A DNA stretch of 5,139 nucleotides. It comes from Deltaproteobacteria bacterium. GTDB lineage: Bacteria; Desulfobacterota; SM23-61. Where the stretch lies: contig JAOUFX010000295.1 of NCBI GenBank assembly GCA_029857975.1, positions 1 to 5,139 of the forward strand, in the 5' to 3' direction. Below, piece by piece: positions 1 through 5,139 of this stretch. The notes below the pieces were generated by a model, which ran no database searches, was not told the origin of the DNA, and worked only from the letters and a program-made list of their open reading frames with translations. A program made the translations under genes and the position numbers. Every line of letters begins with the position of its first letter. Position 1 is the stretch's first letter.

Positions 1-633
1 GATAAAGTCACCTACGCCGGTCTTCAATAAGAAGGCCCCAAAAACTAAGAAAATGAACACATAGGTCGAGGAGACGGCGATGGGAACGCTGTAGATCCCT
101 CCCGGGATCATATTGAGCTGATCGAGTAGAATATTCAAGGGAATGCCTTTGTGCCGGAGTAGCCCGGGCATCCAGGGTCCAGCAAAGGCAAAGGCCAGAA
201 AGGCAAGACAAACCCAAACCAGGGCGGAGCCGACAACCCTCCTGGCTCCTTCGAGGATCATGATGATAATGACGATGGAAGAGGCATAATCCATCAAGGT
301 TAGGGGATCTACATACTCGATCCGATTGATGATGCGGTCATAGTCCAGGAATAAATGGAGGGTCGGGATTACACTCAAGAGGACAAATAGGAGATCCAGG
401 AAAGAGGGCCTTGAAACGGGCGATTTCTTTCCGGAAGGATAGAGTAAAAAAGCGAGAACCAGACCAAAGCTCACATGGAGGCTCCTGTGCTTCATGGCCT
501 CCAGGGGACCCATGGCCGCCGTCCAAATGTGAAAAAGGGACATGGTTACGGCCACAACCATGACTGCGATCCGGACTTTCCCCGCCAGTTTCCGCGCTAA
601 TTTCCCTTCTTCTTTTACTTCGTTCTGGTCCAT
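1..633 (-). CDS. TAXI-TRAP transporter fused permease (N-terminal part), 3'-partial
   Basis: The first 211 residues of a fused TRAP permease of the TAXI type; the frame is still open at base 1. Fused permeases are usually several hundred residues longer, so roughly a quarter to a third is seen. After a charged cytoplasmic start (MDQNEVKEEGKLARK) come hydrophobic segments near residues 21-38, 51-65, 78-96, 114-127, 132-152 and 185-204. Family marks are the DPLTLMDY stretch at 109-116, EGARRVVG at 128-135 (usual form E-x-x-RR-x-x-G), GPWMPGLLRHKG at 152-163, and the SSTYVFIFLVFGAFLLKTG block near 188-206, the start of the DctM-like part. The ATG at 633 has AGGA five bases upstream. It would use an ion gradient to import the solute delivered by the receptor gene just upstream. 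Confidence 0.9.
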   Translation of the reverse strand, partial: MDQNEVKEEGKLARKLAGKVRIAVMVVAVTMSLFHIWTAAMGPLEAMKHRSLHVSFGLVLAFLLYPSGKKSPVSRPSFLDLLFVLLSVIPTLHLFLDYDRIINRIEYVDPLTLMDYASSIVIIIMILEGARRVVGSALVWVCLAFLAFAFAGPWMPGLLRHKGIPLNILLDQLNMIPGGIYSVPIAVSSTYVFIFLVFGAFLLKTGVGDFI

Positions 634-638
634 ATCTT

Positions 639-644
639 TCCTTT
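639..644 (-). promoter_or_regulatory. RBS of the fused permease
   Basis: AAAGGA lies five bases before the ATG at 633. It is weaker than the receptor's AAGGAGG, which fits lower permease output relative to receptor (inference). Confidence 0.55.
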
Positions 645-666
645 CGCAAATCCGGACCCTAGGAAA

Positions 667-709
667 GAAGAAGGAAGGGGATCCGTTTTCCTCTCCCTCT
701 TCCTTCTTC
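667..709 (-). other. Intercistronic stem-loop between receptor and permease genes
   Basis: In the 89-nt gap, GAAGAAGGAAGAGG (709-696) is followed 15 nt later by CCCCTTCCTTCTTC (680-667), giving a 14-position stem with one A-C mismatch in the minus-strand RNA, 11 of its pairs being uninterrupted. No run of T follows, so it is unlikely to be a simple intrinsic terminator. A hairpin at this place commonly protects the upstream receptor mRNA from 3' decay or reduces read-through, allowing more receptor than permease. The structure is seen; the effect is inference. Confidence 0.55.
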
Positions 710-722
710 GTTCTCCCCCAGG

Positions 723-1721
723 TTATTTCAAGTAACCTTTTTCCTTATAGGCCCTTTCCGCCCCTGGATGAAGGGGTACGGGAAGGTAATCCCAGGCCGT
801 AGCAGGATTCCATGGTTTCATGATCTTGTGAGCAGCAGCCAGACTTTCTTTACTCTCCAGAAGAATTCTCGTCATCCAGTAAATCGTTTCTGGATTGGCA
901 TCCGCATGGGAAAAGATGCCATAGGGCCCCAGAGAGGTGGGGACATCATACTTGATCTGCTCATACGTTCCGGCCTTCAGGACGCCGATGGGGTATCCAT
1001 ATTGGGCCATCTTCTTCTGACTCTCGGGGGAAAGGCCCAGGAGCTTCATCCCTTTCGTTGCGGCCAGTTCCAGGATGGCTCCATTCGGGGCTGCGGTAAG
1101 AGGAGTGAAGAGATCCAGATGCCCATCCTTCAGCATTCCCACGGCATCGGTGAATTCTCCAAAAATGATCTTAACTCCTCTCTTTTCCAGGTCTTCGAAA
1201 GTCAGATTCCATCTCCCCTGGAGAAGCTGGCTGGAGGCATACACCCCGACGTGTCCCCTCGGGCCACCGGGATTCCACCGGACTTTCATTTTCTTTTCAA
1301 TCACTTCATCCAGGGTCTTGGCTTCAATGCTGGGGGACGCAACGATCTGGTAATGCTGGACGTATACCGTGGCAATGCCCCGCAAATTCTTGAGGCCCCC
1401 CTTGAACTGGGGTTGAGGCCCGCGCCCATGGTAACCATCGGCCACAGTGGAAGAAGTGGCCCAGCCGATGTCAACCTTCTTCTGCGCCAGGCGCAAAATA
1501 TTGGTGACCGTCCCTCCGGGGGGAAGATCAACAACCGCCCCCGGGATCTTCTTCTTGACCTGCTCAATCCAGGCAGTGGCCAGTTGATTCACCGTTCCCC
1601 CTATGGATCCTCCGCCCATGGTGATATCGAAGGCCTTGGGCTGCTCTGCGGCCATAGAGCCCGGCAGAAAGATTCCCAGGGCTCCGACAATCAAGCCAAT
1701 CGTGATGAGTAACCGTTTCAT
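723..1721 (-). CDS. TAXI-family TRAP transporter substrate-binding protein
   Basis: A 332-residue exported receptor of the TAXI (TRAP-associated extracytoplasmic immunogenic) family, which captures a small organic solute outside the inner membrane and hands it to the TRAP permease. The N-terminus is a clear Sec signal peptide: MKR, a hydrophobic core over residues 4-20, then GSMAA with likely cleavage near residue 24 or 25. Family marks are the GGGSIGGT loop at 36-43, PPGGTVTN at 67-74 followed by a leucine-rich helix, and KVDIGWATSSTVADGY, the TAXI equivalent of the usual 'gevdlglvqsd' stretch. The length is typical. The permease gene follows after 89 nt and the catabolic genes precede it, so its ligand is probably the substrate of that pathway. 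Known TAXI ligands include glutamate and other carboxylates; this one cannot be told from sequence. Confidence 0.92.
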   Translation of the reverse strand: MKRLLITIGLIVGALGIFLPGSMAAEQPKAFDITMGGGSIGGTVNQLATAWIEQVKKKIPGAVVDLPPGGTVTNILRLAQKKVDIGWATSSTVADGYHGRGPQPQFKGGLKNLRGIATVYVQHYQIVASPSIEAKTLDEVIEKKMKVRWNPGGPRGHVGVYASSQLLQGRWNLTFEDLEKRGVKIIFGEFTDAVGMLKDGHLDLFTPLTAAPNGAILELAATKGMKLLGLSPESQKKMAQYGYPIGVLKAGTYEQIKYDVPTSLGPYGIFSHADANPETIYWMTRILLESKESLAAAHKIMKPWNPATAWDYLPVPLHPGAERAYKEKGYLK

Positions 1722-1727
1722 TTTCAC

Positions 1728-1734
1728 CCTCCTT
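1728..1734 (-). promoter_or_regulatory. RBS deciding the TAXI receptor start
   Basis: A strong AAGGAGG lies six bases before the ATG at 1721. It sets the start of the receptor at a methionine followed directly by a signal peptide, rather than at the TTG at 1763, which would put 14 extra residues before that signal peptide. Confidence 0.85.
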
Positions 1735-1782
1735 AAAGATGATGATGTAAAGTGGAGTATCAAAGCAAGCTCTCTTCCGGGG

Positions 1783-1795
1783 TCACCTCCTTTCT
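1783..1795 (-). promoter_or_regulatory. Orphan, near-perfect Shine-Dalgarno sequence
   Basis: Right after the MaoC stop the transcript reads AGAAAGGAGGTGA, a 13-base match to the complement of the common bacterial 16S rRNA 3' tail (CCUCCUUUCU type). No ATG follows at a normal distance. The nearest in-frame start for the receptor is a TTG at 1763, 19 bases away, and the receptor's likely ATG at 1721 has its own SD. It may be a ribosome standby or mRNA-stabilising (STAB-SD-like) site, or a leftover from an older gene. The match is seen; the role is inference. Confidence 0.5.
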
Positions 1796-1796
1796 T

Positions 1797-2273
1797 TCAA
1801 GATTGATGTTCTGCTTCTTTGGACCTCATCGCGAACATGTGCATCGTTCTTCCAGTCTGGACGACTTCATCTCTTTGGTTGAGGAGTTCCCGCCCGAAGG
1901 TCACAACCCCCCGGGCTCCCGACCGGGCCTCCTTCTTGGCGATCACCTGGATCCGACAGCGGACGGTATCTCCTGGGTAGACGGGTTTGTGGAACTTCCA
2001 TTCCTCGATCCCCAGAAAACCCAAACTCTGGTCCATAATCCCGGAGCAGGTCGTCAACCCGCCCATCATGGAAAGAAGCAAAAATCCATGGGCTATTCTT
2101 CTCCCGTAAATGGTTCTCTTGCAATGCTCTTCATTGTTATGGAGGGGATGGACATCCCAAGACACTCCCGTGAAGTTCACTAAATCCGCTTCGGTCACGG
2201 TTCTGGCGGGGGTCTCGAAAACCTCTCCGACCTCGAATTCTGCGAAGTACTTCCCGACATATCTTGGGCTCAT
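1797..2273 (-). CDS. MaoC-like (R)-hydratase, single hot-dog domain
   Basis: A 158-residue single-domain MaoC-family protein, predicted to add water to (or remove it from) an enoyl-CoA. Visible marks: FEVGEVFETPARTVTEADLV at 13-32; the hydratase-2 catalytic pair Asp40 and His45 in SWDVHPLHN; the GRRIAHG block at 57-63 that follows it; and KPVYPGDTV at 96-104, the usual late strand-turn motif. The length is normal for a stand-alone MaoC enzyme. The ATG at 2273 follows the CoA-transferase stop by ten bases, so the two are very likely translated together. In this context the protein could hydrate the unsaturated acyl-CoA made by AcnX and the CoA-transferase (inference). Mesaconyl-CoA-type hydratases are one class of relatives to compare. 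The exact substrate is not readable from the sequence. Confidence 0.9.
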   Translation of the reverse strand: MSPRYVGKYFAEFEVGEVFETPARTVTEADLVNFTGVSWDVHPLHNNEEHCKRTIYGRRIAHGFLLLSMMGGLTTCSGIMDQSLGFLGIEEWKFHKPVYPGDTVRCRIQVIAKKEARSGARGVVTFGRELLNQRDEVVQTGRTMHMFAMRSKEAEHQS

Positions 2274-2280
2274 GGCTCTT

Positions 2281-2286
2281 ACCTCA
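2281..2286 (-). promoter_or_regulatory. RBS of the MaoC gene embedded in the CoA-transferase stop codon
   Basis: The SD-like TGAGGT includes the TGA stop of the CoA-transferase and stands seven bases before the MaoC ATG. A ribosome ending on the upstream gene is already on this site, which points to coupled re-initiation and supports the chosen start. Confidence 0.7.
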
Positions 2287-3492
2287 AATAATTTTTTCCG
2301 CCTTTAAGGCTTTGATCTCTTCTTCGGAATAGCCGATCTCAGCCAATAATTCTTCGGTGTGCTGGCCCAGGAGCGGGGGAGGGTTTTTCCGGGCCCGGGG
2401 AGCGTTGGAAAACCAAAGGGGATTTCCTACGGTCTTGTAAGGGCCAACCGTGGGATGAGGAAGCTCAATCACCATTTCGTCTTCCACCACCTGGGGGTCG
2501 GAGAAAAGCTCCCGGAAATCATACACCGGCGCGCTGGGCACATCCCCTTCATCCAAGAGCTTCAAAATTTCATCGCGGGTCCGGCGGGCAAACTCCTTTT
2601 CCAGTATAGCCACGAGCTCTTTCCGGTTCCTTACCCGGTCGCTGTTGGTTTTGAAACGGGGATCGGCAGTCCATTCTTCATGGTCCAAGGCTCTGGCAAG
2701 GTTTTGCCAAAACGACTCGTTAAAAACATAGATCAGGGCATATTTCCCATCTTTGGTTTTCAAGGCCCTGCAAGGTTCCATGTTCGGCATGGCACTGCCC
2801 CTTCGAGGGACAAGTTCACCGGTAACGAAAAATTCCCCTTCTCGGGGGAGTAAAGCGGGCATGGTTGCGTAGAAGAGGGAAGTTTCAACCTTCTGTCCCA
2901 CCCCCGTTCGCTCCCGGGAAAGAAGAGCCATGAGAATACCCTGAACGGCCATAAGCCCTCCCATGATATCTCCTATGTTGACCCCCGCCCTGCAGGGGCC
3001 TCCATCCTCCTCACCCGTAACGCTCATCACCCCGGCCATAGCCTGGACCACCCCGTCCATGGCGGTTTTATGAGCGTACCGTCCTTTCTGGCCGAAACCC
3101 GAAATCGAGCAATAAACCAAACGGGCGTTGATTTTTCGCAGATCCTCATAGCCCAGTCCAAGCCGATCGATGGCCCCCGGGCGCATATTTTCCATGAAGA
3201 CATCCGCGGTCTTCACCAGTTTCAAAAGAACTTCTTTTCCTTTGGGATGCTTGAGATCCAGGGTGAGACTCTTTTTGTTCCGGTTCAAACTCAGGTAAAC
3301 CGTGCTTTCCCCCCCAACGTATACATTTCCCACACTTCGGGAAAGTTCTCCGCGACCCGGAGGTTCCACCTTTATCACTTCCGCTCCCTGATCGGCCAGC
3401 ATTAGGGTACAGCTCGGACCGGCCATCATATGAGAAAGGTCGATGATCCTTATACCTTCCAGTGGAAACCGTTTCTCCGATCTCGCATTCAT
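2284..3492 (-). CDS. Family III (CaiB/BaiF) CoA-transferase
   Basis: A 402-residue type III CoA-transferase, of usual length, predicted to move CoA from an acyl-CoA donor to a free carboxylic acid in the cytoplasm. Family marks in order: LEGIRIIDLS at 11-20, AGP at 24-26, LADQGAEVIKVEPP at 32-45, LSLNRNKKSLTLDLK at 67-81, ENMRPGAIDRLGLGY at 101-115, YCSISGFGQ at 127-135, the catalytic Asp175 in GVNIGDIMGG (equivalent to Asp169 of formyl-CoA transferase), VPSAPV in the second half, and a C-terminal GQHTEELLAEIGYS tail. The start at 3492 has GGAG seven bases upstream and leaves 31 nt after the AcnX stop. A TTG at 3564 would add 24 atypical residues and overlap AcnX, so it was not used. The acid substrate is unknown; the product of AcnX is the natural guess. 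Confidence 0.93.
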   Translation of the reverse strand: MNARSEKRFPLEGIRIIDLSHMMAGPSCTLMLADQGAEVIKVEPPGRGELSRSVGNVYVGGESTVYLSLNRNKKSLTLDLKHPKGKEVLLKLVKTADVFMENMRPGAIDRLGLGYEDLRKINARLVYCSISGFGQKGRYAHKTAMDGVVQAMAGVMSVTGEEDGGPCRAGVNIGDIMGGLMAVQGILMALLSRERTGVGQKVETSLFYATMPALLPREGEFFVTGELVPRRGSAMPNMEPCRALKTKDGKYALIYVFNESFWQNLARALDHEEWTADPRFKTNSDRVRNRKELVAILEKEFARRTRDEILKLLDEGDVPSAPVYDFRELFSDPQVVEDEMVIELPHPTVGPYKTVGNPLWFSNAPRARKNPPPLLGQHTEELLAEIGYSEEEIKALKAEKII

Positions 3493-3523
3493 CTGCTCAC
3501 TCCATTCTCCGCCTGACCCGAAT

Positions 3524-4735
3524 TTAGGAGGTGGCCGCCTGAACGGATTCTTCCACCGAACCAAAGATTATCCCGATATCAAACTCGGAGGGCATATAAT
3601 AGGCATACTTCGCTGAGTCGGTCATGGCTACCTTAAAGCCCCGATCATGGAAGGGGGCGATGATGACGCAGCTCTGGGGGATCAACTTGGCACCGGCATG
3701 GTCGATCATAGCCTTGTGCCCGGTGGTCCGCGCCATCTCCCAGGTCTCCCGGGAAGTGTGAATCCAGAAAGTGATTTCTTTCTTCACTTTTTTGCCTTTC
3801 AGCAGCTCCGCCACCTTCTTGACCTGGAGGAATGAATAATGAGGGCAACCCAGGACGATAATGTCCGGATTTTTCCCCGCGCCGGTTGATAGATCCTTCC
3901 TCGCCCTTTCGATTTGCCTACGATCGATGGTAACGGTGAACTTGGGCTTCTTCCCCTCAAAGGGTTCCCGATCCAGCGCTTCTGGCGTCACCCCGAGGAT
4001 ATGGATGAGCGCTACCAGGCCGCTCACTGCTGCGGGAGCACAGATGGCGCGAATCTCATCGTTGGAGACCTGGGGAGAAATCCCTTTGACCACGGGGACT
4101 TCGATCCCCACCTCCCGTCCGATGATGAATCCGATGGCATTATAATCCGCTTCTTTCAAGTTCTGAGCGGCTACATCCACTAAAACGGTCCCGCACCGAT
4201 TTTCATCCAGGTAGAGCCCGACCCGGGGGGCTCGCCCGGTGATGGCGGCACAAATATCCATCCCCCCTCCCATCCGGTTGGTGCGCGCGCCGATAACCGT
4301 ATTGGCGAAAGAAACGGCATTCGATTCCGCCCAAGCTACGTTCATCCCCTTCCGAATATAGTGGGTCACATAATAGGGAGCACAGGTCCAGGTGGGCTGG
4401 ACCCCCAGGTTCATCAGAGCTTGGGCGATCCGATCCTGTTTTTTTCGATAGCTCGTGGGGATATTCAAGGATTTCTTCTCCAACCAGCATACGGAAGAGG
4501 GGTTGACCGTGGTCGGAACGGCTACCTTTCCTCCCGCCTCGGCCAGTTTCTCAACCCATTCCATTCCCGCGTTATGGAGACACCCATACATTCCCTGAAC
4601 GTGGCAAGATTGGATCTCGATCAGTTCCTGGGCGCCGAAGGATTCGCCCAATTCGACGATCATTTCCATGGCCAGCTTCACGGCCTGCCCTTTCTTTCCA
4701 GCGAGCATCCTCTTTTCTTCGGCGGTAAGCTTCAT
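3524..4735 (-). CDS. Aconitase X large (catalytic) subunit, hydro-lyase
   Basis: A 403-residue protein of the DUF521/AcnX catalytic family, of normal length, predicted to be a cytoplasmic iron- or Fe-S-dependent dehydratase of a hydroxy acid. Visible marks: IQSCHVQG with Cys44, NPSSVCW with Cys83, TCAPYY with Cys118, the substrate-site block ESN at 137-139 and GARTNR at 149-154, GCPHYS with Cys297, and a late Cys356 in PQSC. These cysteines are candidates for cluster ligands; which ones are used is not shown here. The start at 4735 is chosen over a TTG at 4792 because it has the SD GAGGAG six bases upstream, begins with the typical MKLTAEEKRML, and forms an ATGA overlap with the small subunit stop. 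Characterised relatives are cis-3-hydroxy-L-proline dehydratase and archaeal phosphomevalonate dehydratase. The neighbouring CoA-transferase and MaoC genes suggest another carboxylate substrate (inference). Confidence 0.9.
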   Translation of the reverse strand: MKLTAEEKRMLAGKKGQAVKLAMEMIVELGESFGAQELIEIQSCHVQGMYGCLHNAGMEWVEKLAEAGGKVAVPTTVNPSSVCWLEKKSLNIPTSYRKKQDRIAQALMNLGVQPTWTCAPYYVTHYIRKGMNVAWAESNAVSFANTVIGARTNRMGGGMDICAAITGRAPRVGLYLDENRCGTVLVDVAAQNLKEADYNAIGFIIGREVGIEVPVVKGISPQVSNDEIRAICAPAAVSGLVALIHILGVTPEALDREPFEGKKPKFTVTIDRRQIERARKDLSTGAGKNPDIIVLGCPHYSFLQVKKVAELLKGKKVKKEITFWIHTSRETWEMARTTGHKAMIDHAGAKLIPQSCVIIAPFHDRGFKVAMTDSAKYAYYMPSEFDIGIIFGSVEESVQAATS

Positions 4736-4747
4736 GCCTTTCTCCTC
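4732..4747 (-). promoter_or_regulatory. RBS and ATGA stop/start overlap coupling the two AcnX subunits
   Basis: The small subunit stop (TGA, 4734-4732) and the large subunit start (ATG, 4735-4733) share bases as ATGA. An SD-like GAGGAG (4747-4742) sits six bases before the ATG, inside the end of the small subunit gene. Such an overlap usually gives coupled translation and near-equal amounts of two subunits, which fits a heteromeric enzyme. Confidence 0.85.
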
Positions 4748-5139
4748 TTCGTCACTCGCACCATCCCCGAGTTCCCGTCCACCTGCACCCAATCTCCATT
4801 TTCGATGACCGCCAGAGGATCGGGTTCCAGCCGATCGACTACGGGAAGAACTTTCCCGTAAAGGAGGCGACCCAGTAAAGCGCCACTGGCAATGATGATC
4901 TCAGTTTCCCGGTTCAGGATGGCTGTGGGGGCGTTGCCGCAGCGAATCGTTTCGAGGAGCCAATAGGTGCTGGCCGTTGAACCTTTCCCTTGCGGGTAGA
5001 AAAAGACTTTTTCCTTCACGGACGATCGATAAAGAGGATTTCCTTTATCATCGATAACCCCTGTCGCAGGATCTATGCCGTGGGACCAAACCATAGCCCC
5101 AGGACTCATTAGCGCTTCCCCTTCCCCGATCCCTTTGAC
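4732..5139 (-). CDS. Aconitase X small (swivel) subunit, 5'-partial
   Basis: This is the small, swivelling-domain subunit (DUF126/AcnX_swivel) of an aconitase-X type hydro-lyase, which works with the large subunit encoded next. The frame is open to the window edge. An ATG at 5109 exists, but the codons before it read VKGIGEGEAL, and the GEGEAL part matches the usual N-terminal G-x-x-x-GEAL motif of the family, so the real start lies just outside. About 135 residues are visible, close to full family length, so only a few are missing. Other family marks are the HGIDPATG segment (visible residues 20-27), the GKGSTAST loop (51-58) with the conserved serine after GKG, and the NAP motif (69-71). 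The stop TGA overlaps the ATG of the large subunit gene. The exact substrate is unknown. The family call is strong. Confidence 0.88.
   Translation of the reverse strand, partial: VKGIGEGEALMSPGAMVWSHGIDPATGVIDDKGNPLYRSSVKEKVFFYPQGKGSTASTYWLLETIRCGNAPTAILNRETEIIIASGALLGRLLYGKVLPVVDRLEPDPLAVIENGDWVQVDGNSGMVRVTKRRKA

What the first reader, a model, noticed from the sequence alone, without database searches (positions are those of the whole stretch)
1..5139. Aconitase X, CoA-transferase, MaoC hydratase and TAXI-TRAP transporter in one operon-like run
Six same-strand genes combine an importer with a possible reaction chain: dehydration of a hydroxy acid (AcnX), CoA activation (family III CoA-transferase with Asp175 intact), then enoyl-CoA hydration (MaoC with Asp40/His45 intact). 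Known AcnX roles are cis-3-hydroxyproline dehydration, which goes with imine reductases or racemases, and archaeal mevalonate-phosphate dehydration, which goes with a UbiD-like decarboxylase. None of those partners is in this window. Dehydrate, activate, rehydrate resembles a route through a mesaconate-like unsaturated acid, so AcnX may act here on an uncharacterised C4-C6 hydroxy acid.
Basis: partly seen in the sequence, partly recalled or inferred. Interest (0 to 1): 0.7.

Follow-up and report, generated by a model that had tools for sequence, protein, structure and literature searches.

The report
Aconitase-X of unknown substrate, CoA-linked
A bacterial gene run pairs an aconitase-like enzyme of unknown substrate with an importer and two coenzyme-A enzymes, which suggests an undescribed way of using a small hydroxy acid.

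Summary
In detail: six tightly packed minus-strand genes encode AcnX small and large subunits, a family III CoA-transferase, a MaoC hydratase, a TAXI receptor and the start of a fused TRAP permease.

This AcnX is neither characterised kind. Catalytic and cluster residues are kept, the hydroxyproline landmarks are absent, and the loop that binds phosphate in the mevalonate enzyme is one residue shorter. It falls in a separate clade (13 of 54 rows, support 97/95) with its own invariant His54 (23 of 23 rows).

AcnX beside CoA enzymes and TRAP importers recurs: in one phylum 9 of 16 AcnX loci have CoA-thioester genes and 6 of 16 have TRAP genes nearby, against 2 of 40 control stretches each (weaker without probe-donor loci). 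The window's own gene set was not seen elsewhere: 0 of 80 loci; a shared 10,027-bp contig length hints at one more AcnX-MaoC pair.

Best reading: an imported 3-hydroxy (di)acid is dehydrated by AcnX, loaded on CoA and rehydrated by MaoC. Substrate unknown; mesaconate is one option. Flanks could not be read. New variant of a known kind.

The parts
4732..5139 (-). AcnX small subunit (swivel domain), 5' end probably cut by the window end
   Evidence: PF01989 77.5 bits; matches TkAcnX small chain 7cnr_B, E 7e-15; Ser-Thr of GKGST kept
3524..4735 (-). AcnX large subunit, 403 aa, ATG at 4735
   Evidence: PF04412 451 bits; 7cnr_A E 5e-74; Cys118, Cys297, Cys356, Glu137, Ser138, Lys376, Tyr380 kept
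2284..3492 (-). family III CoA-transferase, 402 aa, motif Asp146
   Evidence: PF02515 435 bits; closest solved chain succinate-hydroxymethylglutarate CoA-transferase, E 2.5e-89
1797..2273 (-). MaoC-type hydratase, 158 aa, Asp40 and His45
   Evidence: PF01575 78.7 bits
723..1721 (-). TAXI solute receptor, 332 aa from ATG 1721 (an in-frame TTG lies at 1763)
   Evidence: TIGR02122 132.5 bits
1..633 (-). fused TRAP permease, first 211 aa, cut by the window end
   Evidence: TIGR02123 155 bits to profile positions 3-190 of 615

Best explanation
A catabolic operon for a small hydroxy acid. TAXI-TRAP imports the acid (inferred). AcnX removes water from a 3-hydroxy carboxylate: the small-subunit Ser takes the C2 proton and the Fe-S cluster the C3 hydroxyl, giving a 2-enoate (inferred from the kept residues). 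The family III CoA-transferase loads the 2-enoate on CoA (inferred). MaoC adds water back to give a 3-hydroxyacyl-CoA (inferred), either on the other carbon of a diacid or with changed stereochemistry, ready for a lyase outside the window. The substrate is most likely a C4-C6 hydroxy acid with a second polar or acidic group, of the citramalate or 3-hydroxy-3-methylglutarate type. Shown: the AcnX clade differs from both characterised kinds. Not shown: the order of steps, the substrate, co-transcription.
For: Tight packing. Catalytic and three cluster residues kept, specificity residues of both known enzymes changed. Separate clade, 97/95; loop deletion, His54, Gly158, Ile359, Glu384 in 23 of 23 clade rows. 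CoA-thioester genes near 9 of 16 and TRAP genes near 6 of 16 AcnX loci of one phylum, 2 of 40 control stretches each (p 6e-5 and 0.005). In the window's own clade, L110 has a succinyl-CoA-ligase-like pair, an AMP-CoA ligase and a DctP TRAP around AcnX. A 10,027-bp contig length is shared by AcnX row P0002 (84%) and MaoC row P0244 (77%). In the TAXI receptor 0 of 6 glutamate-binding residues of VcGluP are kept.
Against: 0 of 80 named AcnX loci have the window's partners. CoA-transferase and MaoC each have 5 further ortholog rows at 67-83%, AcnX only one, so the CoA genes may live without AcnX. No CoA-transferase row shows the 10,027-bp contig. L111, the other clade genome with readable flanks, has no CoA or TRAP gene by these probes. 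The enrichment is absent in the second phylum (CoA 1 of 14, TRAP 2 of 14) and weak once probe donors and two mevalonate-like loci are left out (3 of 10 each, p 0.05). Window, P0002 and P0003 differ from the rest of the clade at pocket positions 47, 49 and 78.
Confidence: 0.48

Rival explanations
1. Citramalate or methylmalate route through mesaconate: AcnX makes mesaconate, the CoA-transferase mesaconyl-CoA, MaoC citramalyl- or beta-methylmalyl-CoA for a CitE-type lyase. A special case of the best explanation.
For: Family III transferase and MaoC are the kinds used in known mesaconate steps; weak similarity of MaoC to mesaconyl-CoA hydratase and of the transferase to mesaconate CoA-transferase (269 bits).
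Against: Both stay below the curated cut-offs; no lyase in the window; loading citramalate directly on CoA would be shorter (inference).
Confidence: 0.15
2. 3-hydroxy-3-methylglutarate type acid: AcnX makes 3-methylglutaconate, then CoA loading and hydration to HMG-CoA.
For: The acid resembles mevalonate 5-phosphate, a known AcnX substrate; the closest solved CoA-transferase is the HMG one.
Against: The same transferase family has many specificities; no HMG-CoA lyase in the window; whether a MaoC enzyme makes the tertiary alcohol is unknown to me.
Confidence: 0.12
3. Neighbourhood only: AcnX and the CoA-transferase-MaoC pair serve different pathways.
For: More ortholog rows for CoA-transferase and MaoC than for AcnX; 0 of 80 other AcnX loci have them.
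Against: Gaps of 31 and 10 bp; the shared contig length of AcnX and MaoC rows; enrichment of CoA genes near AcnX in one phylum.
Confidence: 0.2
4. Hydroxyproline dehydration, the main annotated AcnX role.
For: NCBIfam hydroxyproline dehydratase is the best curated match (330 bits against a cut-off of 700).
Against: Asp203, Trp35 and Thr72 equivalents are Gln, Ser and Ala; separate clade; no imine reductase or racemase in the window; the receptor lacks the amino-group residues of VcGluP.
Confidence: 0.03
5. Mevalonate 5-phosphate dehydration in a bacterium.
For: Cluster residues as in TkAcnX.
Against: Phosphate loop shortened and Ser50 changed to Met; apart from TkAcnX in the tree; no UbiD gene in the window.
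Confidence: 0.02

Closest known systems
AcnX Type-IIb mevalonate 5-phosphate dehydratase (TkAcnX 7cnr/7cns, A. pernix enzyme)
   Same: Two subunits, three cluster cysteines, Glu, Ser, Lys, Tyr and small-subunit Ser-Thr
   Different: Phosphate loop one residue shorter, His54 and Glu384 in the clade, other neighbours, other clade
[quoted passage not shown]
   Same: Fold and catalytic residues
   Different: Landmarks Asp203, Trp35, Thr72 absent; no hydroxyproline genes beside it
AcnX subclasses IIc-IIf of PMC8184944, function unknown
   Same: Bacterial, two subunits, landmark residues of neither known activity
   Different: Which of the four it is could not be told: the paper's supplementary figure was not seen
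Mesaconate CoA-transferase and mesaconyl-CoA hydratase systems (recalled)
   Same: Family III CoA-transferase beside a MaoC-type hydratase
   Different: Both window proteins miss the curated cut-offs; AcnX is not part of those systems as I know them

Membership tests
Aconitase X family | AcnX large-subunit and swivel domains above Pfam cut-offs | tested here: met
   PF04412 451 bits, PF01989 77.5 bits
Aconitase X family | Catalytic Ser, Glu, Ser, Lys and cluster cysteines | tested here: met
   cluster content itself not testable
[quoted passage not shown]
   Gln, Ser, Ala; NCBIfam 330 of 700 bits
[quoted passage not shown]
   None in the window; flanks beyond it not readable
Mevalonate 5-phosphate dehydratase | Loop Gly48-Val49-Ser50 that binds the phosphate | tested here: not met
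   Val49 deleted, Ser50 is Met49
Family III CoA-transferase | PF02515 and motif Asp | tested here: met
   435 bits, Asp146; role of the Asp recalled
Mesaconate CoA-transferase | NCBIfam NF041294 cut-off 700 bits | tested here: not met
   269 bits
MaoC hydratase family | MaoC domain with Asp and His | tested here: met
   78.7 bits; Asp40, His45
Mesaconyl-CoA hydratase | PF19315 cut-off 26.5 bits | tested here: not met
   24.9 bits, first half of the profile only
TAXI-TRAP importer | TAXI receptor above cut-off and fused permease | tested here: inconclusive
   Receptor met (132.5 of 84 bits); permease cut by the window end, 155 of 320 bits
Glutamate-binding TAXI (VcGluP type) | Y45, S75, Q93, E125, Y200, M201 | tested here: not met
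   0 of 6 kept (V, T, T, Q, P, L) in a distant alignment, E 6e-14, read off by hand

The most novel reading that the evidence does not exclude
AcnX, CoA-transferase and MaoC together do in three steps what an aconitase does in one: they move or invert the hydroxyl of an imported hydroxy diacid through a CoA-bound unsaturated intermediate. The clade would be a third AcnX function, and AcnX feeding CoA-thioester catabolism would be a wider strategy in which the activating enzyme (CoA-transferase, AMP-CoA ligase, succinyl-CoA-ligase-like pair) varies by lineage.
Probability: 0.28. Interest if true: 0.72.

Novelty: new variant of a known kind. Interest (0 to 1): 0.52.

Why it matters
The papers I looked at describe two AcnX activities, and PMC8184944 lists the other bacterial subclasses as awaiting characterisation. 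The finding gives one such subclass diagnostic residues, an importer and two CoA partners, so its substrate can be tested directly. If the wider pattern holds, AcnX genes annotated by default as hydroxyproline dehydratase are being misread in some lineages.

Tried and rejected
Hydroxyproline role: rejected on residues, tree and window content. Mevalonate role: rejected on loop residues and tree. Glutamate ligand for the receptor: not supported.

Led nowhere: own-genome search (none held); viral-contig scans with the AcnX alignment and the CoA-transferase (no relative); plasmid search (160 records, best listed 37% identity, not followed up); classes of G068 and G033 (3 and 1 genomes, no new member); order of G556 (3 of 4 genomes hit, each already met); redrew largely the same phylum as (9 of 249 at 1e-80); Chloroflexi draw 0 of 301 at 1e-90 (that limit also excludes the group's own known AcnX at 1.2e-87, so it says only that no close clade member was met); CoA-transferase in the phylum of G068, 2 of 345 at 1e-115 with 45-47% identity, so no ortholog.

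Papers: 'aconitase X' 9 papers; AcnX, DUF521 or DUF126 15 papers, 14 listed; 'aconitase X' together with 'CoA transferase' 0; four terms from 2022 on, 9 papers. No title or abstract start describes this context; papers outside the library were not searched. Seen: PMC8184944 sections 4, 11, 12, 13 and passages; PMC10040528 and PMC11574862 passages; PMC5144071 abstract and start of the introduction; others as listings only. Structure prediction was not run: homology was already certain and the open point is the substrate.

Rows dropped: one search used 23 of the 48 clade rows and 175 of the 177 others (P0045 and P0047 fell out with the range that was cut). In one search, 4 of 16 loci had supplied probes; counts are given with and without them. 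The PrpD probe was read in a wrong frame (43 stops written as X), so PrpD is claimed only where Pfam showed it.

Full report
What is there. The window holds six genes on the minus strand in the order AcnX small subunit, AcnX large subunit, family III CoA-transferase, MaoC hydratase, TAXI receptor, fused TRAP permease. The first and last run off the window. The enzyme genes are tightly packed: the AcnX genes overlap by 4 bp, then 31 and 10 bp; receptor and permease follow after 75 and 89 bp (the 31 corrected by hand for an ATG at 3492). Promoter-like and terminator-like sites are no more frequent than in shuffles. No whole genome is held; the AcnX protein is listed on a 16,131-bp contig that I could not read.

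The AcnX is of an unstudied kind. Watanabe et al. 2021 (PMC8184944; sections 4, 11, 12 and 13 read, passages) solved a hydroxyproline and a mevalonate-phosphate AcnX and state that bacterial subclasses IIc-IIf have no landmark residue of either. In the window the catalytic and cluster residues are kept: Cys118, Cys297, Cys356, Glu137, Ser138, Lys376, Tyr380, and Ser-Thr in the small subunit. The three cysteines match the positions of the cluster ligands of TkAcnX; in the A. pernix enzyme three conserved cysteines hold a [4Fe-4S] cluster (PMC10040528, passages). The hydroxyproline landmarks are absent: Asp203 is Gln47, Trp35 is Ser, Thr72 is Ala. The loop that binds phosphate in TkAcnX has lost one residue and Ser50 is Met49.

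The clade. A tree of 225 large subunits and a careful one of 54 put the window with P0002 (84% identity), P0003 (a Limnochordia MAG, 51%), L110, L111 and others, among them an Acidaminococcales MAG protein. In the careful tree the 13 clade rows form one group with support 97/95, apart from TkAcnX and AtAcnX. Over 23 clade rows against 175 others, the loop deletion, His54, Gly158, Ile359 and Glu384 are present in 23 of 23 and rare outside. His54 follows the residues that bind phosphate in TkAcnX, so it may hold a distal acidic group; that is inference. Among the 15 clade rows shown, window, P0002 and P0003 differ from the other 12 at positions 47, 49 and 78, so the substrate may differ inside the clade.

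Conservation of the gene set. Of 80 AcnX loci from named genomes, 0 carry a tblastn match (1e-4) to the CoA-transferase, MaoC, TAXI or permease within the held flanks, up to 10 kb. Protein lists hint at a second set: AcnX P0002 and MaoC P0244 (77%) are both JGI rows with a longest contig of 10,027 bp. No CoA-transferase row has that length, but the contig given seems to be that of the cluster representative: the MaoC row at 99% shows 2,718 bp, not the window's own contig. Against the set: CoA-transferase and MaoC have 5 further rows each at 67-83%, AcnX one.

Wider contexts. In 395 genomes drawn from the phylum of a Desulfobacterales MAG, 15 have an AcnX at 1e-60, of which G068 and G033 belong to the window's clade. 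In 299 from the phylum of a Firmicutes MAG, 12 have one. I compared 16 and 14 AcnX loci (the 14 include one) with 40 stretches from the same AcnX-bearing genomes, mostly contig starts of 1.3-13.2 kb, which is a rough control. CoA-thioester genes lie within 6 kb in 9 of 16, 1 of 14 and 2 of 40; TRAP genes in 6 of 16, 2 of 14 and 2 of 40. For the first group Fisher p is 6e-5 and 0.005. Without the four loci that supplied probes it is 5 of 12 (p 0.005) and 3 of 12 (p 0.07). Leaving out also the two loci with a UbiD gene, which look mevalonate-like, it is 3 of 10 for each (p 0.05). The pattern is thus clear in one phylum, modest on the strictest count, and not seen in the other.

Examples. L110 (window clade) has on one strand a succinyl-CoA-ligase-like pair, an IclR regulator, AcnX, DctP and DctM TRAP genes, a cupin, an AMP-CoA ligase and an acyl-CoA dehydrogenase; about 1 kb separates AcnX from the TRAP genes. 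L111, also of the clade, has instead an aminotransferase in two pieces, a hydroxyisobutyrate-dehydrogenase-like gene and an AIR-carboxylase-like gene. L119: GntR regulator, AcnX, DctP and DctM, B12-binding protein, MeaB and a methylmalonyl-CoA-mutase-like protein in one run. L117: AcnX, acetyl-CoA hydrolase/transferase piece, mutase piece, acyl-CoA dehydrogenase. L120: TRAP and AcnX in one run, with two AMP-CoA ligases, a MaoC protein and a CoA-transferase III (44% to the window's) on the other strand. In the second phylum the partners are ornithine-cyclodeaminase and proline-racemase family genes (L113; L135 and L136 by probe) or RraA and PrpD (L046, L126).

Partners in the window. The CoA-transferase is closest, among solved chains, to succinate-hydroxymethylglutarate CoA-transferase and is below the cut-off of all 7 NCBIfam models listed. 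MaoC is closest to 1q6w and PaaZ. I compared the TAXI receptor with VcGluP (PMC11574862, passages; alignment; residue numbers fitted by hand with an offset of 28 that agrees with the residues named in the passage): of the six binding residues mutated there none is kept, Glu125 being Gln. At this distance that argues only weakly against an amino acid ligand.

Mechanism. The solved AcnX enzymes take a proton from C2 and the hydroxyl from C3 of a carboxylic acid, so a 2-enoate is the expected product. A family III CoA-transferase can load such an acid and a MaoC hydratase can add water to a 2-enoyl-CoA (family knowledge, not tested here). The detour makes sense if the hydroxyl must move to the other carbon of a diacid or change its stereochemistry. 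Which acid it is cannot be told from sequence.

Verdict.

Noticed in passing
L124:4045-13382 (G577): AcnX genes sit among histidine-use genes: urocanase and HutD by Pfam, two amidohydrolases that look like HutI and HutF by eye. In L141 (G511), whose AcnX is the sister row, the next gene is a histidinol dehydrogenase family member. An AcnX role in imidazole metabolism is possible.
   Followed up: partly
L119:1279-9615 (G316): AcnX, DctP TRAP, B12-binding protein, MeaB and a methylmalonyl-CoA-mutase-like protein in one run, a possible AcnX-to-mutase pathway.
   Followed up: partly
L046, L126, L122: AcnX with RraA-like genes; PrpD confirmed in L046 and L126, a UbiD decarboxylase in L122. Looks like another unstudied AcnX pathway.
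   Followed up: partly
L121 and L128 (G087, G011): Bacterial AcnX of the archaeal-like group beside a UbiD-probe match: possibly a modified mevalonate pathway in bacteria.
   Followed up: no
L111:740-5200 (G033): Window-clade AcnX between an aminotransferase in two pieces and a hydroxyisobutyrate-dehydrogenase-like gene.
   Followed up: no
L001:9971-11681 (G001): A Desulfurococcaceae genome has two AcnX large-subunit matches (44% and 32%); the 44% one groups outside the TkAcnX clade.
   Followed up: no
window:3524-5139: Gene order is small then large subunit, whereas 83 of 84 other loci with both detected have large then small.
   Followed up: no
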